From Rhodococcus spongiicola (lineage in GTDB: Bacteria > Actinomycetota > Actinomycetes > Mycobacteriales > Mycobacteriaceae): 64,000 bases of DNA. The number at the start of each line of letters is the position of its first letter. The first letter of the stretch is position 1. Shown in pieces: positions 13,042 through 60,781 of this stretch. The notes beneath the pieces are model-generated. The model was not told the DNA's origin. It saw nothing but the letters and a program-made list of their open reading frames with translations, and ran no database searches. The stretch lies in contig NZ_RKLN01000003.1 of assembly GCF_004011835.1 (NCBI RefSeq), forward strand, positions 496,001-560,000, written 5' to 3'. The position numbers and the translations under genes were made by a program.

Positions 13042-15561
13042 GTGCTGCTGCCCGATCTGCTCCCCGGAACTGGCCACCCCACGCGCATCGACGCCGACGC
13101 CCTGTTCGACGCGTTCACCTCGTGGACGAGTGACCGCGGCCTGCAGTTGTACCCGGCGCAGGAGGAGGCGCTCATGGAGCTTGTCTCCGGGGCCAACGTC
13201 ATCCTCGCCACCCCCACCGGCTCGGGCAAATCGATGGTCGCGCTCGGTGCGCACTTCTTCGCGCTCGCGGAAGGTCGGCGTACGTTCTACACCGCGCCGA
13301 TCAAGGCGCTGGTGAGTGAGAAGTTCTTCGCGCTCTGCGATGTGTTCGGTGCGGACAACGTCGGCATGATGACCGGCGATGCGTCGGTGAATTCGTCGGC
13401 CCCGATCATCTGCGCGACTGCCGAGATCGTCGCGAACCTGGCGCTACGCGAGGGTCCGGACTCCGACATCGGACAGGTCGTCATGGACGAGTTTCACTTC
13501 TATTCCGAGCCGGACCGCGGCTGGGCATGGCAGGTTCCGCTGATCGAACTGCCACAGGCCCAGTTCCTGTTGATGTCCGCGACTCTCGGTGACGTCACCT
13601 ACCTGCGCAAGGACCTCACCCGGCGGACGGGCCGGGAGACGGCCGAGGTGTCGGGGTCCGAACGACCGGTGCCACTGCACTTCTCCTACTCGCAGACCCC
13701 GATCGGCGAGGAGATCGCGGAACTCGTCACCACCCACCAGGCTCCCGTCTACGTGGTGCACTTCACGCAGGCCGCAGCACTCGAGCGGGCGCAGGCACTG
13801 ACGAGCGTGAACCTGTGCACTCGCTCGGAGAAGGACGCGATCGCGGAGGCCATCGGCAGCTTCCGGTTCACAACCGGGTTCGGGAAGACACTGTCGCGCT
13901 TGGTCCGTCACGGTATCGGCGTCCACCACGCGGGCATGCTGCCCAAGTATCGGCGGCTTGTAGAGCGGCTGGCACAGGACGGCCTGCTCAAGGTCATTTG
14001 CGGCACCGACACGCTCGGTGTCGGCATCAACGTGCCGATCAGGACGGTGCTGCTGACGGGCCTGACGAAGTTCGACGGCGCCCGCACCCGCCAGTTGCGG
14101 GCGCGCGAGTTCCACCAGATCGCCGGCCGTGCCGGCCGCGCCGGCTACGACACCTTCGGCAATGTCGTGGTCCAGGCACCCGAGCACGAGATCGAAAACG
14201 TGCGGGCACTGGCGAAAGCCGGAGACGACCCGAAGAAGCGGCGGAAAGTACAGCGAAAGAAGCCCCCGGAAGGTTTTGTGTCGTGGGGCGAGGGGACGTT
14301 CGAGAAGCTGACCGCCGCGTCCCCCGAGCCGCTCGTCTCCCGGTTCTCGGTGAGCAATTCGATGCTCCTCAACGTGATCGCGAGGCCCGGCAACGGTTTC
14401 CGGGCGATGCGACATCTGCTCGAGGACAACCACGAGCAGCGCCCGGCGCAGCGTCGGCACATCCTCAAGGCGATCCGGCTGTACCGGGGGCTGTTGCAGG
14501 CGGGCATCGTCGAGCAACTCGACGAACCCGACGAGCACGGTCGTCTGGCGCGCCTGACGGTGGACCTGCAGCGCGACTTCGCGCTCAACCAGCCGCTCTC
14601 GCCGTTCGCGCTCGCCTCACTCGAACTTCTCGACGTCGAATCCCCCAGCTACGCACTCGACGTCGTGTCGGTGATCGAGTCGACGCTGGACGACCCACGA
14701 CAGATCCTCATGGCCCAGCAGCACGCCGCGCGCGGTGAGGCGATCGCCGAGATGAAGGCCGACGGAATCGAGTACGAGGAGCGCATGGAACTCCTCGAGG
14801 AGATCACGTGGCCACAGCCATTGGCGGACTTGCTCTTCCCCGCGTTCGAGACCTATCGAGCGGGTCATCCGTGGATGAGCGAGTTCACCCTCTCGCCCAA
14901 GTCCGTGGTGCGCGACATGGTGGAGCGATCGATGACGTTCGCCGAACTGATAAGCCACTATGGCCTTGCTCGGTCCGAGGGACTGGTGCTGCGTTACCTC
15001 GCGGACGCATACCGCGCACTGCGGCAGACGGTTCCGGCGGAGGCCCGTACCGAGGAGCTCGAGGATCTCACCGAGTGGCTGGGTGAGCTCATCCGTCAGG
15101 TGGATTCGAGCCTGCTCGACGAGTGGGAGCAGCTGACGAACCCGGGCGTCGAGTCCGACGACCAGCAGGTGGCGTTCGGGGCCGACGCGCCCCGTCCTAT
15201 CACCGCGAATACCCGCGCTTTCAAGGTGATGGTCCGCAACGCGATGTTCCGTCGCATCGAACTGGCGGCGCGGGAGCGCTGGGAGGAGTTGGGAGAGCTC
15301 GGGGACGGCCTCGACGCCGACGACTGGGCCGACCTCATGGAGCTTTACTTCGACGAGTACGACGAGATAGGAACCGGCCCGTCGGCCCGTGGACCGTTGC
15401 TCTTCCAGGTAACCGTCGAGCCGAAGCTGTGGCGGGTGCGGCAGGTCCTCGACGACCCCAAAGGCGACCACGGCTGGGCCCTGCTCGGTGAGGTCAACCT
15501 CGCCGAGTCGGACGCGGCCGGTGAAGTGGTATTCGACGAGTTCGAGGTGGCCGAGGGCTAG
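13042..15561 (+). CDS. Ski2-like DEAD/DEAH-box helicase with DUF3516
   Basis: An 839-residue superfamily 2 helicase. Walker A is ATPTGSGKS at 56-64, motif II is DEFH at 149-152, motif III is LMSATLG, and the C-terminal RecA domain carries VHHAGMLPKYR, TDTLGVGINVP and QIAGRAGRAGYD. The C-terminal half matches the actinobacterial DUF3516 extension. The Ski2/HelY-like core suggests RNA unwinding, possibly in decay or ribosome maturation, but DNA cannot be excluded. The GTG start is supported by the TAGCCT -10 six bases upstream. Forty-odd bases later the operon A flavoprotein begins with its own control element. Confidence 0.9.
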   Translation: MLLPDLLPGTGHPTRIDADALFDAFTSWTSDRGLQLYPAQEEALMELVSGANVILATPTGSGKSMVALGAHFFALAEGRRTFYTAPIKALVSEKFFALCDVFGADNVGMMTGDASVNSSAPIICATAEIVANLALREGPDSDIGQVVMDEFHFYSEPDRGWAWQVPLIELPQAQFLLMSATLGDVTYLRKDLTRRTGRETAEVSGSERPVPLHFSYSQTPIGEEIAELVTTHQAPVYVVHFTQAAALERAQALTSVNLCTRSEKDAIAEAIGSFRFTTGFGKTLSRLVRHGIGVHHAGMLPKYRRLVERLAQDGLLKVICGTDTLGVGINVPIRTVLLTGLTKFDGARTRQLRAREFHQIAGRAGRAGYDTFGNVVVQAPEHEIENVRALAKAGDDPKKRRKVQRKKPPEGFVSWGEGTFEKLTAASPEPLVSRFSVSNSMLLNVIARPGNGFRAMRHLLEDNHEQRPAQRRHILKAIRLYRGLLQAGIVEQLDEPDEHGRLARLTVDLQRDFALNQPLSPFALASLELLDVESPSYALDVVSVIESTLDDPRQILMAQQHAARGEAIAEMKADGIEYEERMELLEEITWPQPLADLLFPAFETYRAGHPWMSEFTLSPKSVVRDMVERSMTFAELISHYGLARSEGLVLRYLADAYRALRQTVPAEARTEELEDLTEWLGELIRQVDSSLLDEWEQLTNPGVESDDQQVAFGADAPRPITANTRAFKVMVRNAMFRRIELAARERWEELGELGDGLDADDWADLMELYFDEYDEIGTGPSARGPLLFQVTVEPKLWRVRQVLDDPKGDHGWALLGEVNLAESDAAGEVVFDEFEVAEG

Positions 15562-15579
15562 TTTCGCTCTTGTGTGATG

Positions 15580-15595
15580 TGTGACACTGCAACGC
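15580..15595 (+). promoter_or_regulatory. Shared operator-like element before operon A
   Basis: TGTGACACTGCAACGC abuts the ATG at 15596. The paralogous operon B has TGTAACACTGTAACGC in exactly the same place (14 of 16 bases identical). The element contains an 8-base direct repeat (TGTRACAC/TGYAACGC). A TetR gene lies divergently beside the operon B copy, so this is a candidate binding site for that regulator. Confidence 0.6.
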
Positions 15596-17224
15596 ATGAG
15601 TATTGAGCGAGTGGAAGATCGGTCCGTCGCGGCTACACCCCCGATGAAGTGGGACGCGTGGGGCCTGGCGGAGAAGAGCACGACCCTCTCGGACGGCATC
15701 AAGGGCCTGCTGCAGCAGGCCCTCGGCGTCACGACTCGTCAGACGCCCGAACGTGCGGCGGAGGACGTGGTCCTGGCCGCGAGCGCGGTGTCCGAAGACC
15801 AACTCGCCGCTCTCGCCGCGATCGTCGGCGAACGATTCTGCAGTACCGCTCACTATGATCGACTGCTGCGGTCGGGCGGCAAGAGCACGATCGACCTGCT
15901 GCGCCGCCGCAGCACCGAACAACAGAACGCACCCGATGTCGTGGTCATCCCGGGCACCGAGGCCGAAATCGCCGAGATCCTCGACTACTGCGCCGACAAC
16001 TCGATCGCCGTGGTGCCGTTCAGCGGTGGCTCCAGCGCCGTGGGCGGACTCGACCCGGTGCGCGACCGGTTCGACGCGGTTCTCTCGCTGGACATGCGCC
16101 GGTTCGATTCGCTGATCGACCTCGACACCGACTCGGGTATCGCGACCCTGGGAGCGGGCCTGCCTGGTCCCAGGGTCGAGGAGCGGCTCGGCGCGCACGG
16201 CTTCTCGCTTGGGCACTTCCCGCAGAGCTTCATGTTCTCCACCATCGGCGGCTTCGCGGCAACCCGCTCCTCGGGGCAGTCATCCGCTGGCTACGGCAGG
16301 TTCGAAGACATGGTGCAGGGCCTGCGGGTGGTGACCCCGGCGGGCATCCTGGACACCGGGCGCGCGCCGGCCTCCGCGGCGGGTCCGGATCTCGGCGAGT
16401 TGTTCGTCGGCTCGGAGGGGACGCTCGGCGTCATCACCCAGGTCCGTGTGCGGGTGCATCCGGTTCCGGAGTCCGTCGTCCGGGAGGGGTGGCGTTTTCC
16501 GGATTTCGAGACCGGCACGGCGGCACTGCGCGCACTGCGGCACGAAGGCGCTGTCCCGACCGTGCTGCGGCTGTCCGACGAGGCCGAAACGGGAGTCAAT
16601 CTCGCGACCCACGACAAGATCGGCAAGGAAGCCGTAACCGGTGGTTGCCTCGCAATCACCACGTTCGAGGGCACCACCGACCACACCGCGCAGCGGGTGG
16701 CCCAGGCTCGCGCGGTCCTGCAGTCTCACGGCGCGACATCGCTGGGCGAGGGGCCCGGAAACAATTGGGAACGAGGCCGTTTCGACGCGCCCTACCTGCG
16801 CGACGCCCTGCTCGATGCGGGTGCGCTGGTCGAGACCCTCGAGACGGCGACCACCTGGAGCAATCTCGCGACCCTACGTGCCGCGGTCACGAAGGCGCTG
16901 ACCGAGTCGTTGTCCGGGCAGGGAACCCCGCCGCTGGTGCTGTGCCACATCTCGCACACCTACGCGACGGGCGCGTCGCTGTACTTCACCATCGTGTGTG
17001 CGCAGAAGGAAGACCCGATCGACCAGTGGAGCAAGGCCAAGACCGCCGCCGGTGACGCGATCATCGCCGCCGGTGGAACCATCACGCACCACCACGCCGT
17101 CGGAGTCGATCACCGCCCGTGGATGCGGGACGAGATCGGCGACCTGGGTGTGACCGTCCTGCGTGCGGTCAAGAACGCCGTCGACCCCGCAGGAATCCTC
17201 AACCCCGGCAAATTGATTCCGTGA
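15596..17224 (+). CDS. FAD-linked oxidase, alkyl-DHAP-synthase-like (operon A)
   Basis: A 542-residue VAO/PCMH-type flavoprotein. The FAD-binding half shows VVVIPGTEAEIAEIL, VVPFSGGSSAVGG and GHFPQSFMFSTIGGFAATRSSGQ. The C-terminal half ends with the triple-His motif THHHAVG (His 498-500) and VDPAGILNPGKLIP. The STIGG...TRSSG and HHH motifs are those of alkyldihydroxyacetone-phosphate synthase, which swaps an acyl for an alkyl chain on DHAP, so an ether-lipid-like reaction on a glycerol-phosphate substrate is plausible but unproven. The ATG at 15596 is chosen by alignment with the paralogue at 57513. Its stop overlaps the next gene by 4 bases (GTGA). Confidence 0.82.
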   Translation: MSIERVEDRSVAATPPMKWDAWGLAEKSTTLSDGIKGLLQQALGVTTRQTPERAAEDVVLAASAVSEDQLAALAAIVGERFCSTAHYDRLLRSGGKSTIDLLRRRSTEQQNAPDVVVIPGTEAEIAEILDYCADNSIAVVPFSGGSSAVGGLDPVRDRFDAVLSLDMRRFDSLIDLDTDSGIATLGAGLPGPRVEERLGAHGFSLGHFPQSFMFSTIGGFAATRSSGQSSAGYGRFEDMVQGLRVVTPAGILDTGRAPASAAGPDLGELFVGSEGTLGVITQVRVRVHPVPESVVREGWRFPDFETGTAALRALRHEGAVPTVLRLSDEAETGVNLATHDKIGKEAVTGGCLAITTFEGTTDHTAQRVAQARAVLQSHGATSLGEGPGNNWERGRFDAPYLRDALLDAGALVETLETATTWSNLATLRAAVTKALTESLSGQGTPPLVLCHISHTYATGASLYFTIVCAQKEDPIDQWSKAKTAAGDAIIAAGGTITHHHAVGVDHRPWMRDEIGDLGVTVLRAVKNAVDPAGILNPGKLIP

Positions 17225-18135
17225 GCACACAGAAGGTGATCGAGAAGGTCACCGTCCTGATCAACCCGCTTGCCGGGCACGGCAACGGACTGACCGCCGG
17301 CCGCAAGGCGGTCGTACGCCTGCGTGAGCGGGGAGTTGCCGTCACCGAGATCATCGGTACGGACGCCGATCACGCCCGCAAGCTGGCCCGGCGGGCCATC
17401 GACGAGGGCACCGACGCCCTCGTCGTGGCCGGCGGCGACGGTGCGATCAGCATCGGGTTGCAGACGGCTGCGCAGATCGGGGTGCCAATCGGGCTGATAC
17501 CGGCGGGTACCGGCAACGACCACGCGCGCGAGTTCGGTATCCCCCGTGGTGACCCTGTCGCGGCGGCGGATGTGATCGCCGACGGTGAGGTGCAGGAGTC
17601 CGACCTAGCTCGGATCACGCTCGGCAACGGTTCGGTCGTGTGGGCGGGCACCATCGTTGCCAGCGGTTTCGATTCGCTGGTCGCGGATCGCGCCAACCGG
17701 ATGTCGTGGCCGAAGGGCCCGATGCGGTACAACCTGGCGATGCTCGTGGAACTCTCGCAGGTCAAGCCCTTGCGCCACCGCATCGAACTGGACGAGGAAA
17801 CCGTTCACGTCGACGCTACGCTCGTCGCAGTCGGCAACGGCCGTTCGTATGGTGGCGGGATGCTGATCTGCCCGAAGGCGGACAGGACCGACGGTCTGCT
17901 CGATGTGACGGTCGTCGAGCACGGTCGTCGATCAAGGCTGATCCGGCTGTTCCCGCGGGTCTACAAGGGCACGCACGTGGAGCTACCCGACGTGCAGACC
18001 TACCGTTCACGCAGCGTGCGATTGCAGTGCGAGGGCATCCCCGCCTATGCGGACGGCGACAGGGTCGGGCCTCTCCCAGTGACGATCGAGGCGGTTCCGT
18101 CAGCGTTGCACATCCTGAGTCACGCGCCGGCCTGA
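17221..18135 (+). CDS. Diacylglycerol/lipid kinase, DagK-YegS type (operon A)
   Basis: A 304-residue protein of the NAD-kinase-like lipid kinase family. The nucleotide motif is LVVAGGDGAISIGLQ, followed by IPAGTGNDHAREFGIP. The C-terminal beta-sandwich contains GNGRSYGGGMLICPKADRTDGLLDV. The family phosphorylates diacylglycerol or related lipids at the membrane. The closest remembered mycobacterial relative is the Rv2252 kinase linked to phosphoinositol-mannoside precursors. The GTG overlaps the flavoprotein stop, and the coupling is conserved in operon B, so the two products probably act in one pathway. Confidence 0.85.
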   Translation: MSTQKVIEKVTVLINPLAGHGNGLTAGRKAVVRLRERGVAVTEIIGTDADHARKLARRAIDEGTDALVVAGGDGAISIGLQTAAQIGVPIGLIPAGTGNDHAREFGIPRGDPVAAADVIADGEVQESDLARITLGNGSVVWAGTIVASGFDSLVADRANRMSWPKGPMRYNLAMLVELSQVKPLRHRIELDEETVHVDATLVAVGNGRSYGGGMLICPKADRTDGLLDVTVVEHGRRSRLIRLFPRVYKGTHVELPDVQTYRSRSVRLQCEGIPAYADGDRVGPLPVTIEAVPSALHILSHAPA

Positions 18136-55298: not shown

Positions 55299-56810
55299 TC
55301 ATACTCCTTCGAACGCACGCTCAGCGGCCGGCAGCGCCTGCTCCCGGTCAGCGGGGACCAGTCCGATACGGGTGCGTCGGTCGAGAATGTCGTCGACGTC
55401 GATCGCACCCTCGTGGCTCACCGCGAACGCCAACTCGGCGTGGGTGACGTCGATACCGTCTGCGATCGGGGCCAGTTCGCCCGCGGCGGCGACGGCACCG
55501 GCCTCGGCGCCATACCGCGCGACCAGTGACGGCGGCAAGTCCTGCGACGGGGTCCGCGCTGCGCCGACCGCGGGCAGGTCGGTCGTCACGCACGAACGCG
55601 CGGTCAGTCCGCCCGCCTTGACGGCGGCGTCGACGGCGTCCTCCGCCATCTTGCGGTAGGTGGTGAGCTTGCCGCCGACGACGCTGATGACGCCATTCGA
55701 CGAGCGCAGCACGGCATGGTTCCGGGACAGGTCGGCCGTCTTGCCGCCGCCGGTGTCGAGGAGCGGACGAAGGCCGGCGAACGTGCCGAGCACATCGGAT
55801 CGCGTGACCGGGGTCGCGAGCGCGGTGTTGACGGTGTCGAGCAGGAAGTCGATCTCATCGTCCGACGCAACCGGTACATCCGGGATCGCGCCGTCGACGG
55901 CCTCGTCGGTCAGTCCCAGGTAGACCCGTCCGAGCTGGGACGGCAGCATGAACACGAATCGGTTCATCTCTCCCGGGATCGGAACCGTCAGCGCCGCAGT
56001 GGGATTGCCGAGCAACTCCGCCGGGAGCACCAGGTGGGTTCCGCGACTCGGCTTGAGGCGGATGTCGGGATCGACCTGCCCCGCCCATACGCCGCTCGCG
56101 TTCACCACCGAGCGGGCTCGGATCGTCATCTCCTCCCCGGTCAGTTCGTCGCGCAGCGTGGCCGAATCGCCGGTCACGTCGTACGCGCCGACGCGGGTCA
56201 GCACCGTCGCCCCGTGCGCCGCGGCAGTTCGGGCGAGGGTGACAACGAGCCGGGCATCGTCGATGAGCTGTCCGTCGTACGCGAGCAGGCCGCCGCGCAA
56301 CCCCTCCCGTCGGACCGCGGGCGCGAGTTGTTCCGCTCTGGCGGCACCGACACGCCGCGACCGTGGCAGCACCGACGATGGGGTCCCGGCCGTGATCCGC
56401 AGTGCGTCACCGGCCAGGAATCCAACCCGGACCAGTGTTTTCTCGAAGAAGCCGACCGAGGGCAACAACGGCACCAACTGCGGCATGGCGCGCACGAGAT
56501 GCGGGGCGGTGCGAGTCATGAGAATGCCACGTTCGACGGCGCTCTCCCTGGCGATCCCGACGTTGCCGGTCGCGAGGTAGCGCAGACCACCGTGGGCCAG
56601 CTTGGAACTCCAGCGACTGGTGCCGAACGCGAGGTCGTGCTTGTCGACCAGGACCGTGCGCAGCCCGCGTGACGCGGCGTCGAGCGCGGTCCCGACGCCG
56701 GTGATACCGCCACCAATCACGAGAACGTCTACGGAAGCGTGGTCGCCGAGTTCCGAAAGCTCCCGGCGGCGCCGGTCCGCGTTGAGCGCCGACTGCGAAT
56801 TGTCGTGCAC
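55299..56810 (-). CDS. glpD: Glycerol-3-phosphate dehydrogenase
   Basis: A 503-residue FAD-dependent GlpD. The dinucleotide motif VLVIGGGITGVGTALDAASRG, the family segment GTSRWSSKLAHGGLRYL, substrate residues in PSRGTHLVLP, and ISVVGGKLTTYRKMAEDAVD are present. It oxidises glycerol-3-phosphate to DHAP at the membrane, feeding the quinone pool. The GTG follows AGGAGG. It lies behind a TetR gene that diverges from operon B, so the glycerol-phosphate enzyme, regulator, flavoprotein and lipid kinase form one cluster, as around Rv2249c-Rv2252. Confidence 0.93.
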   Translation of the reverse strand: MHDNSQSALNADRRRRELSELGDHASVDVLVIGGGITGVGTALDAASRGLRTVLVDKHDLAFGTSRWSSKLAHGGLRYLATGNVGIARESAVERGILMTRTAPHLVRAMPQLVPLLPSVGFFEKTLVRVGFLAGDALRITAGTPSSVLPRSRRVGAARAEQLAPAVRREGLRGGLLAYDGQLIDDARLVVTLARTAAAHGATVLTRVGAYDVTGDSATLRDELTGEEMTIRARSVVNASGVWAGQVDPDIRLKPSRGTHLVLPAELLGNPTAALTVPIPGEMNRFVFMLPSQLGRVYLGLTDEAVDGAIPDVPVASDDEIDFLLDTVNTALATPVTRSDVLGTFAGLRPLLDTGGGKTADLSRNHAVLRSSNGVISVVGGKLTTYRKMAEDAVDAAVKAGGLTARSCVTTDLPAVGAARTPSQDLPPSLVARYGAEAGAVAAAGELAPIADGIDVTHAELAFAVSHEGAIDVDDILDRRTRIGLVPADREQALPAAERAFEGV

Positions 56811-56883: not shown

Positions 56884-57492
56884 TCACTGCGCCAGGCTCG
56901 GTGCGAGTTCGGGAGCGAGATACGAGTCGATGGCGATTTGCAGCTCGGCGCTGAGTTCGTCCGCCGGCAGCACTTCTGCCACCATCCCGGCTGATTGGAC
57001 CGTGGACTGTGCGATCAGCAGGACCATCGCCGCGATGTGGGCGGGATCACCGACGCGGATCGAGCCATCGACCTGTCCCGCCGCTACCGCAAGTGACACC
57101 CGCTCGACGATCTCGCGCTGGCTCGTCCCGAGCCGCTCGATGACATAGGTCATTATCAGATCCGGATCCGATCGCAGAATCTTCATGTACAGCGGATGCT
57201 CCCGCATCCCGGTCGCGACCTCGACCACCGCCCGCACCAACTGGATGCGCGCAGGCTCATCACCGACAATGCCAGGGATCACGACGTGGATCTCCCGGGT
57301 CAACAGGTCGGCGACCACAGCGCGGGTGTCCGGCCAGCGACGGTAGACGGTTGGCCGGCTCACACCGGCGCGACGGGCAACCTCCGCGAGCGTCGTGCGA
57401 CGGAGGCCGAAGTCCAGCACGCACGAGCGTGCCGCGTCGAGGATGAGGTCATCGACGGTAGACTGATCGGAACCCTCGTTACAACTAGACAT
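56884..57492 (-). CDS. TetR family regulator
   Basis: A 202-residue TetR protein. The N-terminal HTH is TTLAEVARRAGVSRPTVYRRWPDTRAVVADLL. The C-terminal ligand domain is helical (residues about 75-195) without a recognised ligand signature. Its ATG is only 20 bases from the operon B ATG, and this gap is almost entirely the 16-bp element shared with operon A. Autoregulation and control of both flavoprotein/lipid-kinase operons are the natural inference. glpD lies downstream on the same strand. Confidence 0.88.
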   Translation of the reverse strand: MSSCNEGSDQSTVDDLILDAARSCVLDFGLRRTTLAEVARRAGVSRPTVYRRWPDTRAVVADLLTREIHVVIPGIVGDEPARIQLVRAVVEVATGMREHPLYMKILRSDPDLIMTYVIERLGTSQREIVERVSLAVAAGQVDGSIRVGDPAHIAAMVLLIAQSTVQSAGMVAEVLPADELSAELQIAIDSYLAPELAPSLAQ

Positions 57493-57496
57493 CGTA

Positions 57497-57512
57497 TGTA
57501 ACACTGTAACGC
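57497..57512. promoter_or_regulatory. Shared operator-like element at the TetR/operon B divergence
   Basis: TGTAACACTGTAACGC abuts the operon B ATG at 57513 and starts 4 bases from the TetR ATG. It is 14/16 identical to the element before operon A. A single protein bound here would cover both starts. Confidence 0.65.
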
Positions 57513-59144
57513 ATGTCCGAAGCATTCGTCCCTGAGTTCCCCGCCATCGAGGCGCCCACCATGGAGTGGGACGCCTGGGGCGTCGGCGAGTCCCGCCGTG
57601 AGCTGTCACCGCAAATCAAGTCGCTACTCCAACAAGCCCTGGGTGTGTCGGAAGAGCAGTCCGCGCCGCCCACCGAAGCCAACACGACCCTGCGTGAGAG
57701 CACGCTGGGCACCTCGCTCATCGGTTCGCTCGAGGACCTCCTCGGCGCCGACAATGTCCGCACCGACGCCGCGACGCGACTGCGTCACGCCGGCGGCAAG
57801 AGTACCCCGGACCTGCTGCGCCGCAGGTCGACCGGAGAGCAGGATGCACCCGATGCTGTGCTGCTGCCCGGCACGCATGACGAGGTGCAGGCACTGCTGC
57901 AATTGTGTGCGGCCGAAGGCATCGCCGTGGTGCCCTTCGGTGGCGGCACCAGCGTCGTCGGCGGCGTGGATCCGACGCGGGGCCGTTTCGGATCCGTCGT
58001 CGCAATCGACCTGCGCCGACTCAATGCCCTCGTCAGCCTCGACCCGGTGTCGGGTATCGCAACCCTTCAGGCGGGAGCAACAGGCCCGCAGGCCGAGCAA
58101 CTACTGGGCGAGCACGGACTCTCCCTCGGACACTTCCCGCAGAGCTTCCAGTTCGCGACCATCGGAGGCTTCGCAGCCACCCGGTCGTCGGGACAGGCCT
58201 CGGCAGGCTACGGTCGCTTCGACGACATGGTCGAGTCCCTTCGAGTCGCGACACCTTCGGGCACAATCGATCTCGGTCGCGGTCCCGCGTCGGCAGCCGG
58301 ACCGGATCTGCGTGAGCTGTTCGTCGGTTCCGAGGGCACACTCGGAATCATCACCGAGGTCGGTGTGCGGGTGCACCCGGTCCCGGAGCGCACTCTGTAC
58401 CAGGCGTGGTCCTTCCCCGACTTCGAGACCGGCGCCGCGGCGCTGCGAGCGGCGGCACAGTCCGGTTCGGCGCCGACGGTGATGCGTCTGTCGGACGAGG
58501 CCGAGACCGGCCTCAACCTCGCCCTCGCCGGCAACATCGGCGGCGACAGCCCGGCGGCATCCGGATGCCTGGCGATCACGACGTTCGAAGGCACCGACGC
58601 GCACGCCCAGGCCCGCTACAACGAGGTAATCGCTCTGCTCGCCGCTGCCGGGGGTAGCGCTCTGGGTGAGGCACCTGCCGAGGCTTGGGAGCACGGCCGC
58701 TACGATGCTCCGTACCTTCGCGACGCCCTGCTGAACGCCGGTGCGATCGTCGAAACCCTCGAAACCGCGACGACCTGGTCGAATCTCGCGAACCTCAAGA
58801 GTTCCGTCACGACTGCGCTGACCGAATCGCTTACCGCCCAGGGCACTCCGGCGATCGTGATGTGCCACATCTCGCACACCTACCCGACGGGTGCCTCGCT
58901 GTACTTCACCGTTGCGTGCGCCCAGGCCGCCGACCCGCTGTCGCAGTGGATGGCTGCCAAGCGCGCCGCGGGAGATGCGATCGTCGCCGCGGGTGGCACT
59001 ATCACCCATCACCACGCCGTCGGCCGCGACCACCGTCCATGGATGGAGAGCGAGGTGGGTGAACTCGGCGCACGGGTCCTGCGCGCAGTCAAGGACGCAA
59101 TCGACCCCTCCGGAATCCTCAACCCTGGCAAGCTGATCCCATGA
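57513..59144 (+). CDS. FAD-linked oxidase, alkyl-DHAP-synthase-like (operon B, Rv2251-like)
   Basis: A 543-residue flavoprotein, collinear with the operon A protein along its whole length. FAD segments are VLLPGTHDEVQALL, VVPFGGGTSVVGG and GHFPQSFQFATIGGFAATRSSGQ. The AGPS-type triple His is THHHAVG (499-501) and the end is IDPSGILNPGKLIP. The mycobacterial equivalent is annotated as alkyl-DHAP synthase. An alkyl transfer or a redox reaction on a glycerol-phosphate derivative is plausible, given glpD in the same cluster, but actinobacteria are not generally known for ether lipids. The stop overlaps the kinase start by 4 bases. Confidence 0.84.
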   Translation: MSEAFVPEFPAIEAPTMEWDAWGVGESRRELSPQIKSLLQQALGVSEEQSAPPTEANTTLRESTLGTSLIGSLEDLLGADNVRTDAATRLRHAGGKSTPDLLRRRSTGEQDAPDAVLLPGTHDEVQALLQLCAAEGIAVVPFGGGTSVVGGVDPTRGRFGSVVAIDLRRLNALVSLDPVSGIATLQAGATGPQAEQLLGEHGLSLGHFPQSFQFATIGGFAATRSSGQASAGYGRFDDMVESLRVATPSGTIDLGRGPASAAGPDLRELFVGSEGTLGIITEVGVRVHPVPERTLYQAWSFPDFETGAAALRAAAQSGSAPTVMRLSDEAETGLNLALAGNIGGDSPAASGCLAITTFEGTDAHAQARYNEVIALLAAAGGSALGEAPAEAWEHGRYDAPYLRDALLNAGAIVETLETATTWSNLANLKSSVTTALTESLTAQGTPAIVMCHISHTYPTGASLYFTVACAQAADPLSQWMAAKRAAGDAIVAAGGTITHHHAVGRDHRPWMESEVGELGARVLRAVKDAIDPSGILNPGKLIP

Positions 59145-60064
59145 CGAAGTCGGTTTCTGTCCTCACCAATCCCACCGCAGGCGGCGGGAGCGCGCCCGCC
59201 GCTGCTGCCGCCGCCATCGCTCGCCTGCGGGAGCGCGGCGTCACGGTCACCGAGATCGAGGGCCGCGACGCCGAGGAGGCCCTGGAGTTGGCCCGCAAGG
59301 CCGTCGCCGCCGGCACCGACGCGCTTGTCGTCGCCGGCGGCGACGGATTGGTCAGCATTGCGTGGCAGGCGCTGGCAGAGACCGGGACCCCGCTCGGCAT
59401 CATTCCCGGCGGCACCGGCAATGACCACGCCCGGCTGTTCCACATCCCGGTGGGCGACCCGGTCGCGGCCGCCGACATCGTGGTCGACGGCCAGATCGCC
59501 ACCATCGACCTGGCCCGAGCCGGAGAACGCTGGTTCGGCACCGTCTTGTCGAGCGGGTTCGACGCCCTGGCCACCGACCGAGCCAATCGGATGGGATGGC
59601 CGCAGGGGCCGCTGCGCTACTACATCGCGATGTTGGTCGAATTGGCTCAGCTGAAGCCGATCCCGTACCGGATCACCCTCGACGACCGCACGATCGAAGT
59701 CGACGCGACGATGGTGACGGTCGGCAACGGCACCTCGTACGGCGGAGGGATGCTCATCACCCCGAACGCCAAGCTCGACGACGGTCTGCTCGACATCACC
59801 GTCGTGGGATCGCACGGACGGTTCAAACTCGTGCGCCTGTTCCCCACGGTGTACAAGGGCACGCACGTCGAGCTCGATGAGGTGCAGACCTACCGCACCC
59901 GCAAACTCCGATTGGAAGCGTCAATTCCGGGTCGCTCCGTCCACTCCGTCCGCGACGCGCCCGTCACGTCATACGCCGACGGCGAGTTCGTGGGGCAACT
60001 TCCGATCGAAGTCGAGGCCGTGCCCGGGGCGGGACGGGTCATCGTCAGCGAACCGCTGCAATAG
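59141..60064 (+). CDS. Diacylglycerol/lipid kinase, DagK type (operon B, Rv2252-like)
   Basis: A 307-residue lipid kinase with LVVAGGDGLVSIAWQ and IPGGTGNDHARLFHIP for nucleotide binding and GNGTSYGGGMLITPNAKLDDGLLDI in the C-terminal domain. It is a paralogue of the operon A kinase, with an insertion (about 10 residues) near the C-terminus. The orthologous Rv2252 enzyme makes phosphatidic acid used for phosphatidylinositol mannosides. The ATG overlaps the flavoprotein stop. It is convergent with a PIG-L gene three bases away. Confidence 0.88.
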   Translation: MTKSVSVLTNPTAGGGSAPAAAAAAIARLRERGVTVTEIEGRDAEEALELARKAVAAGTDALVVAGGDGLVSIAWQALAETGTPLGIIPGGTGNDHARLFHIPVGDPVAAADIVVDGQIATIDLARAGERWFGTVLSSGFDALATDRANRMGWPQGPLRYYIAMLVELAQLKPIPYRITLDDRTIEVDATMVTVGNGTSYGGGMLITPNAKLDDGLLDITVVGSHGRFKLVRLFPTVYKGTHVELDEVQTYRTRKLRLEASIPGRSVHSVRDAPVTSYADGEFVGQLPIEVEAVPGAGRVIVSEPLQ

Positions 60065-60067
60065 CGG

Positions 60068-60781
60068 TCAGCCGCCGAAGACGTACAACTCGAAGCCGAC
60101 GGCTCGCTCAGCGTCGAACCCAGGCTTGGGCCCGGTGGACATCTCGATCTGCCGGGCCGCCTGGTCCAGGACGGGTTCGTCGCTGAGCGCCTCGAGATAC
60201 GCACTGTGCTCACACAGGGACTCGACGGCCCGTTCGACCGTCGCAGTGACGTCGACGGCATGTGTGAGGCCCATCAGCACGTTGACCGCAACCCACCGCA
60301 CACCCGTCCATGGCGGCTCCGTGAGTTCGGCGAAGATCCACTCGTTTGCAGCGTCGGCGACGGCGTCGAGCACTGCGAGCCCGACGGCCCGGTGATCGGC
60401 GCTGTTGAGGAAGCCCGGACCCCACGTCTCACGATGGTTCATCGTGACGATCATCTCCGGCCGGTGCAGCCGGATCACGCGCGCGAGATCCCGCCGCAGG
60501 TCGGGCCCGTGTTCGATTCGGCCATCGGGGTAGCCGAGAAACTCGACCTTCGACACCCCGACGGCGGCGGCGGAGCGACGCTCCTCGGTCTCGCGAAGCG
60601 GCCCGCAATGCCGGGGGTGTAGGCCCTCGATCCCTGCCTCGCCACTCGTGACCAGGACGTACCGAATGTCCTTGCCCTGACCGGTCCATCGGGCCACAGC
60701 GGCGGCGGAACCGTACTCGATGTCGTCGGGGTGGGCGGCGATCACCAGCCCTCGCTGCCAGTCCTCGGGGATCGACTCCAT
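60068..60781 (-). CDS. PIG-L family N-acetylglucosamine deacetylase-like
   Basis: A 237-residue PIG-L/LmbE zinc hydrolase. The metal and catalytic motif AAHPDDIEYGSAA is near the N-terminus. MNHRETWGPGFLNSADHRAVGLAVLDAV supplies the second metal ligands (HxxH-type). Relatives deacetylate GlcNAc conjugates such as GlcNAc-inositol or mycothiol adducts (MshB, Mca) or lipid-linked sugars. Which one cannot be decided. The close 3' position to operon B is convergent, so no operon link. Confidence 0.87.
   Translation of the reverse strand: MESIPEDWQRGLVIAAHPDDIEYGSAAAVARWTGQGKDIRYVLVTSGEAGIEGLHPRHCGPLRETEERRSAAAVGVSKVEFLGYPDGRIEHGPDLRRDLARVIRLHRPEMIVTMNHRETWGPGFLNSADHRAVGLAVLDAVADAANEWIFAELTEPPWTGVRWVAVNVLMGLTHAVDVTATVERAVESLCEHSAYLEALSDEPVLDQAARQIEMSTGPKPGFDAERAVGFELYVFGG

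What the first reader, a model, noticed from the sequence alone, without database searches (positions are those of the whole stretch)
15580..18135. The same flavoprotein/lipid-kinase operon occurs twice in 42 kb
15596-18135 and 57513-60064 each encode an AGPS-like flavoprotein whose stop overlaps a DagK-type kinase by four bases. Proteins are collinear throughout. Copy B lies with glpD and a TetR gene, as in Rv2249c-Rv2252. Copy A stands alone. GlpD makes DHAP, AGPS uses acyl-DHAP, and the kinase phosphorylates a glycerolipid, so the parts suggest a glycerol-phosphate to ether-like or modified lipid route that has been duplicated and may have diverged in chain or headgroup.
Basis: partly seen in the sequence, partly recalled or inferred. 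Interest (0 to 1): 0.7.

Follow-up and report, generated by a model that had tools for sequence, protein, structure and literature searches.

The report
Two lineages of lipid enzyme pair
A Rhodococcus genome carries two distantly related versions of a gene pair resembling the enzyme that builds ether lipids plus a lipid kinase; one looks native, the other was probably acquired from a related lineage, and both seem to belong to a little-studied lipid route shared by many actinobacteria.

Summary
An AGPS-type flavoprotein plus a YegS/Rv2252-type kinase occur at 15596-18135 (A) and 57513-60064 (B), each with a 4-base overlap, 62% and 57% identical. Residues reported as important in Dictyostelium AGPS are kept in both. 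It is not a local duplication: A groups with Mycobacterium/Streptomyces pairs, B with other Rhodococcus and unnamed family genomes; one common Rhodococcus clade is rejected (p 0.003). B is in 14 of 14 same-genus genomes, A in 2 of 14. A looks acquired from an R. marinonascens-like lineage: its synonymous divergence is half or less that of the adjoining helicase. The full unit is glpD1-tetR / agps-dagK; of 301 family genomes 220 have both GlpD1 and AGPS, 8 AGPS alone, none GlpD1 alone. A conserved 36-bp element abuts the AGPS start; the genome holds two sites, at A and B. I propose that kinase, GlpD1 and AGPS act in sequence on 1-O-acyl/alkyl-glycerols (salvage or exchange), under TetR control. 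Chemistry and direction are inferred; no structure could be modelled. Interest moderate.

The parts
15562..15595 (+). Promoter/operator-like element of copy A, between the helicase stop codon and the AGPS ATG
   Evidence: TGTGACACTGCAACGC + ATG, 2 mismatches to the copy B element; no match in 100 shuffles of the window; left half-site altered compared with R. opacus-clade copies
15596..17224 (+). AGPS_A, alkyl-DHAP-synthase-type FAD protein (542 aa)
   Evidence: 2uuu E 3e-91; FAD_binding_4 + FAD-oxidase_C; R330, R407, Y468, H503-505 (numbered from GTG 15581) align with Dd R352, R447, Y508, HHH
17221..18135 (+). DagK_A, YegS/Rv2252-type lipid kinase (304 aa, GTG start)
   Evidence: PRK11914 511.7 bits, cut-off 302; DAGK_cat + YegS_C
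57477..57512 (.). Divergent promoter/operator-like element of copy B; holds the tetR start codon and abuts the AGPS_B ATG
   Evidence: CGTTAC-N14-TGTAACACTGTAACGC; related elements from Streptomyces to Rhodococcus; one of only two sites in the genome at up to 3 mismatches, control pattern 1
57513..59144 (+). AGPS_B, alkyl-DHAP-synthase-type FAD protein (543 aa)
   Evidence: 2uuu E 6e-99; R325, R403, Y464, H499-501
59141..60064 (+). DagK_B, YegS/Rv2252-type lipid kinase (307 aa)
   Evidence: PRK11914 413.6 bits, cut-off 302; 2qv7 DgkB E 9e-26
56884..57492 (-). TetR-family regulator, divergent from AGPS_B (start inferred from the conserved element; the longest ORF runs to 57609)
   Evidence: TetR_N 46.5 bits; element
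55299..56810 (-). GlpD1, GlpD-type FAD dehydrogenase (503 aa)
   Evidence: DAO 167.5 bits; 2qcu E 5e-47 and 3da1 E 3e-55; invariant H73, R77, Y78, R348, R363, K381

Best explanation
A and B are two versions of one actinobacterial module whose full form is glpD1-tetR divergent from agps-dagK. Shown here: family membership, conserved catalytic residues, conserved gene order, a conserved element at the AGPS start, GlpD1/AGPS co-occurrence, the deep split of A and B. Inferred history: B is native to the genus; A (pair plus about 34 bp of upstream element, without glpD1/tetR) came from the R. opacus/R. marinonascens lineage, where A-type pairs stand in for a lost B pair while glpD1-tetR stay at the old site. 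Inferred function: the kinase phosphorylates a 1-O-acyl- or 1-O-alkyl-glycerol, GlpD1 oxidises the product at C2 to the 1-O-substituted DHAP phosphate, and AGPS exchanges the C1 acyl and alkyl groups through its flavin. This would salvage or cleave glycerol ethers, or make alkyl-DHAP without a DHAP acyltransferase. TetR would repress both operons, A perhaps more weakly.
For: AGPS chemistry: R352 in 110 of 110 rows, R447 109, Y508 109, the three His 109/108/109 of 110 (misses: L024, a fragment of a frameshifted gene, and L170 with Q at the second His); the genome's GlcD-like paralogue L003 lacks R352, R447, Y508 and the first two His but has the third. Importance in Dictyostelium of R352, R447, Y508: PMC3509576 passages. 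Module: outside the A-type rows, GlpD divergent from AGPS in 84 rows of 91 with room, TetR 81 of 91, DagK adjacent 81 of 92 (several places fetched twice). Co-occurrence over 301 family genomes: both 220, AGPS only 8, GlpD1 only 0, neither 73. A second, 39%-identical GlpD exists. One GPAT_C acyltransferase in the genome. Regulation: element within 3 mismatches before AGPS in 96 of 128 rows; two genomic sites only. Displacement: 20 of 20 tested genomes of group g23 keep GlpD1, in 18 away from any listed AGPS place; six such B sites read hold GlpD and TetR in 6 of 6, AGPS or DagK in 0 of 6, the element at 1-2 mismatches in five and 3 in one. Acquisition: dS window to R. marinonascens 0.42 (AGPS_A), 0.29 (DagK_A) against 0.83 (helicase).
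Against: No enzyme activity, lipid or expression datum was obtained. The substrate of GlpD1 is inferred from co-occurrence; its G3P-site residues are the ordinary ones, which fits plain G3P too. The Rv2252 orthologue is reported as a diacylglycerol kinase (PMC3229680 passage), a substrate without a free C2 hydroxyl for GlpD1. Four AGPS-GlpD rows lack a recognisable DagK (L105, L164, L172, L173). The DagK tree does not resolve the sister group of A. DUF5997, next to A, has a dS (0.46) near that of AGPS_A, and AhpC a third-position identity (77.8) as high as A. A two-domain FAR-like protein (L227) leaves classical synthesis possible. TetR binding is not shown, and part of the element is tetR coding sequence.
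Confidence: 0.42

Rival explanations
1. Classical ether-lipid synthesis: GlpD1 supplies DHAP, an unlinked acyltransferase makes acyl-DHAP, AGPS swaps in a fatty alcohol, and the kinase returns ether diglyceride to the phosphatidate pool.
For: AGPS residues kept; a two-domain FAR-like protein in the genome (L227); Myxococcus AGPS MXAN_1676 is needed for ether lipids to a minor degree (PMC9131029 passages); AGPS homologues in many phyla, Actinobacteria included, are read as ether-lipid potential in PMC11868695 (passages).
Against: None of eight window neighbours searched against Pfam is a FAR or GNPAT, unlike the Myxococcus operon; DHAP needs no dedicated, co-regulated source; one GPAT_C protein only; no paper held all four terms on Rhodococcus alkyl ether phospholipids.
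Confidence: 0.27
2. AGPS-fold oxidase or exchange enzyme with another substrate, the AGPS name being only a family label; kinase and GlpD1 do ordinary diacylglycerol and G3P recycling.
For: I found no assay of these proteins; GlpD1 keeps standard G3P residues; Rv2252 reported as a DAG kinase.
Against: The tested AGPS catalytic residues are kept in 108-110 of 110 rows, while the GlcD-like paralogue keeps only one of the six.
Confidence: 0.25
3. Recent duplication inside Rhodococcus followed by divergence of A and B.
For: Both within 42 kb; same element upstream.
Against: Careful tree places A with Mycobacterium/Streptomyces rows (97/93) and B in another group (96/92); AU p 0.003 against one Rhodococcus clade (the groups were named after a first tree was seen); A absent from 12 of 14 same-genus genomes.
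Confidence: 0.04
4. A is ancestral to Rhodococcus and was lost in 12 of 14 same-genus genomes, not acquired.
For: Same helicase/DUF5997 site in R. marinonascens and G141; DUF5997 and AhpC are about as similar to R. marinonascens as A is.
Against: dS of A to R. marinonascens is half or less that of the helicase; third-position identity of A to R. marinonascens 74-80% against 59-68% for AGPS_B within the genus, G004 left out; different upstream junctions in window, R. marinonascens and G141.
Confidence: 0.12

Closest known systems
Eukaryotic alkyl-DHAP synthase, AGPS (2uuu, 4bby; species names of the entries recalled)
   Same: Match over nearly the whole protein; R352/R447/Y508/HHH conserved
   Different: Bacterial partners are a kinase and a GlpD, not GNPAT/FAR
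Myxococcus xanthus MXAN_1676-1674 operon (PMC9131029, passages)
   Same: Bacterial AGPS in an operon, in an aerobic bacterium
   Different: Myxococcus partners are a FAR-GNPAT fusion and an epimerase/dehydratase-family protein; here GlpD1, TetR and DagK
M. tuberculosis Rv2249c-Rv2252 (gene names from a table passage in PMC4564863; Rv2252 activity from a passage of PMC3229680)
   Same: Same four kinds of gene in the same order as copy B's locus
   Different: Mycobacterial rows in the tree (M. tuberculosis not among them) are nearer to copy A than to B
YegS/BmrU/DgkB lipid kinases (2qv7)
   Same: DAGK_cat + YegS_C domains, PRK11914 equivalog passed
   Different: Substrate untested; may be monoacyl- or alkylglycerol
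E. coli aerobic GlpD (2qcu)
   Same: Long match, putative G3P-site residues kept
   Different: Linked to and co-occurring with AGPS; 39% identical to the genome's other GlpD

Membership tests
AGPS (alkyl-DHAP synthase) | Long match to solved AGPS, better than to other VAO-family proteins | tested here: met
   A: 2uuu 310 bits against 129 for the best D-lactate dehydrogenase; B: 335 against 133
AGPS (alkyl-DHAP synthase) | Catalytic R352, R447, Y508 and HHH motif | tested here: met
   Both copies; 108-110 of 110 rows. Roles of R352/R447/Y508 from PMC3509576 passages; weight on HHH is recalled
AGPS (alkyl-DHAP synthase) | Exchange of acyl for alkyl on DHAP phosphate | not testable with these tools
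   Needs enzyme assay
AGPS (alkyl-DHAP synthase) | Fold with the gating domain | not tested
   Structure prediction queue was full at each of 14 attempts (first, last)
GlcD glycolate oxidase subunit | NCBIfam TIGR00387 cut-off 567.9 bits | tested here: not met
   146.6 and 141.0 bits
YegS/Rv2252 diacylglycerol kinase | PRK11914 cut-off 302 bits | tested here: met
   511.7 and 413.6 bits
YegS/Rv2252 diacylglycerol kinase | Phosphorylates diacylglycerol | not testable with these tools
   Needs enzyme assay
GlpD glycerol-3-phosphate dehydrogenase | PRK12266 cut-off 360 bits | tested here: not met
   251.8 bits; the genome's other GlpD also falls short, 337.1, so this says little
GlpD glycerol-3-phosphate dehydrogenase | Substrate-site residues (E. 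coli H50, R54, Y55, R317, R332, K354; list recalled) | tested here: met
   All aligned, and invariant in the 26 rows of A2
Recent in-genus duplication | A and B sister within Rhodococcus | tested here: not met
Ether-lipid synthesis operon of Myxococcus type | Linked FAR and GNPAT | tested here: not met
   In the window: none of eight neighbours searched against Pfam. In other loci most neighbours were compared only with window proteins, so it is open there
Plasmalogen synthesis | CarF/PEDS1 (PF10520) | tested here: inconclusive
   0 in own genome, but the control rang in none of 14 genomes

The most novel reading that the evidence does not exclude
GlpD1 is a new specificity of the GlpD family: a membrane dehydrogenase for 1-O-acyl- or 1-O-alkyl-glycerol-3-phosphate. 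With the kinase and AGPS it forms a complete, TetR-controlled actinobacterial route between monoglycerides or glycerol ethers and fatty alcohol plus (acyl-)DHAP, that is an oxygenase-free way to break, or a GNPAT-free way to make, glycerol ether bonds. The window, whose nearest named relative among the loci I fetched (R. xishaensis) was described from marine sponges, carries a second version, which could reflect a diet of sponge alkylglycerols.
Probability: 0.25. Interest if true: 0.78.

Novelty: new variant of a known kind. Interest (0 to 1): 0.5.

Why it matters
A module with the tested AGPS catalytic residues is present in about three quarters of the sampled family (228 of 301 genomes). In the listings of my paper searches I saw no title or abstract start that assigns this flavoprotein a reaction; most listed papers were not opened, and the library lacks most subscription journals. 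Rv2252 alone is reported as a diacylglycerol kinase. Whether these bacteria make, salvage or cleave ether lipids is directly testable. A genome that keeps both versions of the AGPS-kinase pair beside one GlpD1/TetR gives a natural comparison, and the conserved element gives a handle on the inducer.

Tried and rejected
Rejected: local or in-genus duplication; a plasmid match of A at megablast sensitivity (no match); start codon GTG 15581 for AGPS_A (the element lies across it and ends at ATG 15596); the idea that GlpD1 stands out by missing the NCBIfam cut-off (the other GlpD misses it too).

Led nowhere: CarF/PF10520 search (control rang nowhere); papers on Rhodococcus alkyl ether phospholipids (no paper with all four terms); identity of A-site neighbours as pathway enzymes (at the R. 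opacus-type site an MFS protein in L053 and an aldo/keto reductase in L054; a TM7S3/TM198-like protein at the site without A, above the Pfam cut-off in L191 and just below it in L183; no function follows). Structure prediction of AGPS_B (alignment A1) was asked for 14 times and each time the queue was full, so no model and no fold search exists.

Considered and left open: sponge alkylglycerols as the substrate. R. xishaensis was described from marine sponges (title in the reference list of PMC11893733) and one sponge is reported to contain 1-O-alkylglycerols (abstract of PMC9319591). This is one acquisition event and proves nothing.
Full report
What is there. Window positions 15596-18135 (copy A) and 57513-60064 (copy B) each hold a FAD protein followed, with a four-base overlap, by a lipid kinase. 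The flavoproteins are 62% identical over 543 residues, the kinases 57% over 309. Both flavoproteins match solved AGPS structures (2uuu E 3e-91 for A, 6e-99 for B), well ahead of the next family, D-lactate dehydrogenase. The kinases pass the PRK11914 diacylglycerol kinase equivalog.

Catalytic residues. In Dictyostelium AGPS, R352, R447 and Y508 are reported as important for catalysis (PMC3509576, passages). In the alignments these fall on conserved residues of both copies (the chain numbering there is three lower than the literature numbers, by my count). Over 110 rows (AGPS rows of part of the fetched loci, identical ends removed, pieces under 380 residues dropped), R352 is kept in 110, R447 in 109, Y508 in 109, and the HHH motif in 109, 108 and 109; the misses are L024, a fragment of a frameshifted gene, and L170 with Q at the second His. 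The glycolate-oxidase-like paralogue L003 of the same genome lacks the first three and the first two His, but has the third His. I take AGPS-type chemistry as likely, not shown.

Neighbourhood. I inspected 108 loci with flanks: 68 from the one genome-contig scan and 40 stretches; some places occur in both sets. Gene calls were made by a simple GC-frame script and labelled by blastp against window proteins. They gave 108 AGPS rows in 107 loci. Fifteen are A-type in context: 15 of 15 have DagK, 0 of 14 with room have GlpD or TetR beside them. Of the other 93, GlpD lies divergently beside AGPS in 84 of 91 with room, TetR in 81 of 91, DagK in 81 of 92. The rows without GlpD are L111, L156 (two rows) and L174-L177; L105, L164, L172 and L173 have GlpD but no recognisable DagK. 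The arrangement thus reaches from Mycobacterium, Tomitella, Williamsia and Gordonia to Kitasatospora, Streptomyces, Thermocrispum and Actinomadura.

Co-occurrence. Over the same 301 genomes of the family, AGPS (E up to 1e-90) is in 228 and GlpD1 (E up to 1e-95) in 220; both 220, AGPS alone 8, GlpD1 alone 0, neither 73. Genomes share ancestry, so the Fisher p is not a true probability. Of the eight exceptions, four have only AGPS hits near the cut-off (G014, G068, G078, G153), three are 83-88% complete (G223, G264, G271), and in G324 the AGPS lies about 1.3 kb from a contig start. The own genome has a second GlpD at 39% identity.

A conserved element. Directly before the AGPS start of copy B lies CGTTAC-N14-TGTAACACTGTAACGC-ATG; the tetR start codon lies inside it. 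Of 128 AGPS rows scanned (places fetched twice counted twice), 96 have the 16-base core and a start codon within 3 mismatches: 9 with 0, 42 with 1, 40 with 2, 5 with 3. These include Mycobacterium, Streptomyces, Kitasatospora, Tomitella, Williamsia, Thermocrispum and Rhodococcus rows. Actinomadura rows show a more divergent, related-looking palindrome; Aeromicrobium and L174-L177 show none. In L150 the scan missed it because the ORF start was called too far upstream; one search shows it there. In the window the pattern is found at copy B (0 mismatches) and copy A (2), and in none of 100 shuffles; the whole genome holds just these two sites at up to 3 mismatches, against 1 for the control pattern. 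The left arm overlaps tetR codons in B, so part of the conservation may be coding; but it also persists in R. opacus-clade copies that lack an adjacent tetR, and is altered in window A. I read it as promoter plus TetR operator; binding is not shown.

Two lineages. A careful tree of 77 AGPS rows (thinned from 110, long branches removed) puts A in a clade of 13 Rhodococcus rows (100/100), sister to Mycobacterium, Streptomycetaceae, Tomitella, Gordonia and other rows (97/93), and B in a group of 19 rows from its own genus, unnamed family genomes and one Rhodococcus MAG (96/92). Holding A and B Rhodococcus rows together costs 46.9 log units, AU p 0.003 (groups chosen after the first tree). The kinase tree gives the same 13-row A clade (100) apart from B, but leaves its sister group open.

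History of copy A. B is in all 14 same-genus genomes (in G009 as two pieces), A in G000 and G004 only; G004's contig has the length and place of R. xishaensis LHW51113. In the other 12 genomes the helicase gene is followed by DUF5997 without A, in 11 of 12 with a called ORF of 210-280 aa between; two of these ORFs were checked and look TM7S3/TM198-like. Between window and R. marinonascens dS is 0.42 for AGPS_A and 0.29 for DagK_A but 0.83 for the helicase; DUF5997, short and adjacent, has 0.46. Third-position identities: A 74 and 80, helicase 60, two genes before it 40 and 48, LysR-type and OxyR genes 63 and 64, but DUF5997 73 and AhpC 78. Between G000 and G004 dS of A is 0.20-0.21, within the 0.15-0.31 of six other genes, so A predates their split. 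A evolves under weaker constraint than B: dN/dS 0.21 against 0.07 for AGPS, 0.20 against 0.13 for the kinase.

Displacement. R. opacus, R. jostii and related genomes carry the A-type pair after a 422-425 aa gene (an MFS protein in L053, the one tested), and R. marinonascens and G141 have a further copy at the helicase site. The 79 bases before the AGPS ATG are identical in the two R. marinonascens copies, so the helicase-site copy still carries the end of the MFS gene, which suggests the direction of copying; in the window the element follows the helicase stop codon directly. All 20 tested genomes of that genus group (g23) keep GlpD1; in 18 it lies away from the listed AGPS places, in G100 and G319 beside one (one genome, G295, has AGPS copies whose places were not listed). 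Six B sites were read: GlpD and TetR in 6 of 6, AGPS or DagK in 0 of 6, the element with 1-2 mismatches in five and 3 in one. In the GlpD tree these GlpD1 rows fall with the window GlpD (SH-aLRT 80, not starred), not with Mycobacterium. So in that clade an A pair seems to have replaced the B pair while the old GlpD1 and TetR stayed; the window shows both pairs together.

How it may work. Known: in animals alkylglycerol kinase supplies 1-O-alkyl-G3P by phosphorylating alkylglycerol, GNPAT makes acyl-DHAP and AGPS alkyl-DHAP (PMC9131029, passages). Inferred: kinase, GlpD1 and AGPS fit one line: 1-O-R-glycerol to 1-O-R-G3P to 1-O-R-DHAP, then acyl/alkyl exchange. GlpD enzymes pass electrons to quinone, so the G3P-to-DHAP direction is favoured (established knowledge), which suits salvage or cleavage of ethers, or conversion of 1-acyl-G3P to acyl-DHAP in a genome with one GPAT_C protein. 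A FAR-like protein (L227) and a CAR-like protein (L226) exist unlinked (names recalled from domain make-up), so fatty alcohol could be made or consumed. Direction is undecided. Against this stands the report that Rv2252 is a diacylglycerol kinase (PMC3229680, passage).

Limits. No structure, activity or lipid datum. The M. tuberculosis locus was not fetched; its gene order comes from a table passage in PMC4564863. The genome-contig scan was seeded with copy A peptides, so named loci lean to A-like rows. AGPS homologues in Actinobacteria have been noted before in a metagenome study (PMC11868695, passages).

Noticed in passing
15561-15596 and L052, L151: The gap between the DUF3516 helicase and DUF5997 genes holds different inserts in different Rhodococcus genomes, with different upstream junctions.
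   Followed up: partly
L053:8556-8750: Tandem repeats follow the kinase at the MFS site in R. marinonascens; a similar pattern follows it in L150.
   Followed up: no
L156 (G017): Two divergent AGPS genes in tandem in a 1.9 Mb genome, without a neighbouring GlpD or DagK, though a GlpD1 hit exists in that genome.
   Followed up: no
L174-L177: Divergent AGPS rows keeping the catalytic residues but without GlpD, TetR or DagK beside them; L176 stands beside an enoyl-CoA hydratase and a DUF6670 protein, L175 near an MPAB/Lcp-type protein.
   Followed up: partly
G009:C1:4118655-4120279: AGPS_B is split into two frames in this genome (79% complete assembly); may be a sequencing error.
   Followed up: no
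60068-60781: PIG-L family deacetylase gene beside copy B, also beside the B site in 4 of 6 inspected genomes that lack AGPS_B there.
   Followed up: no
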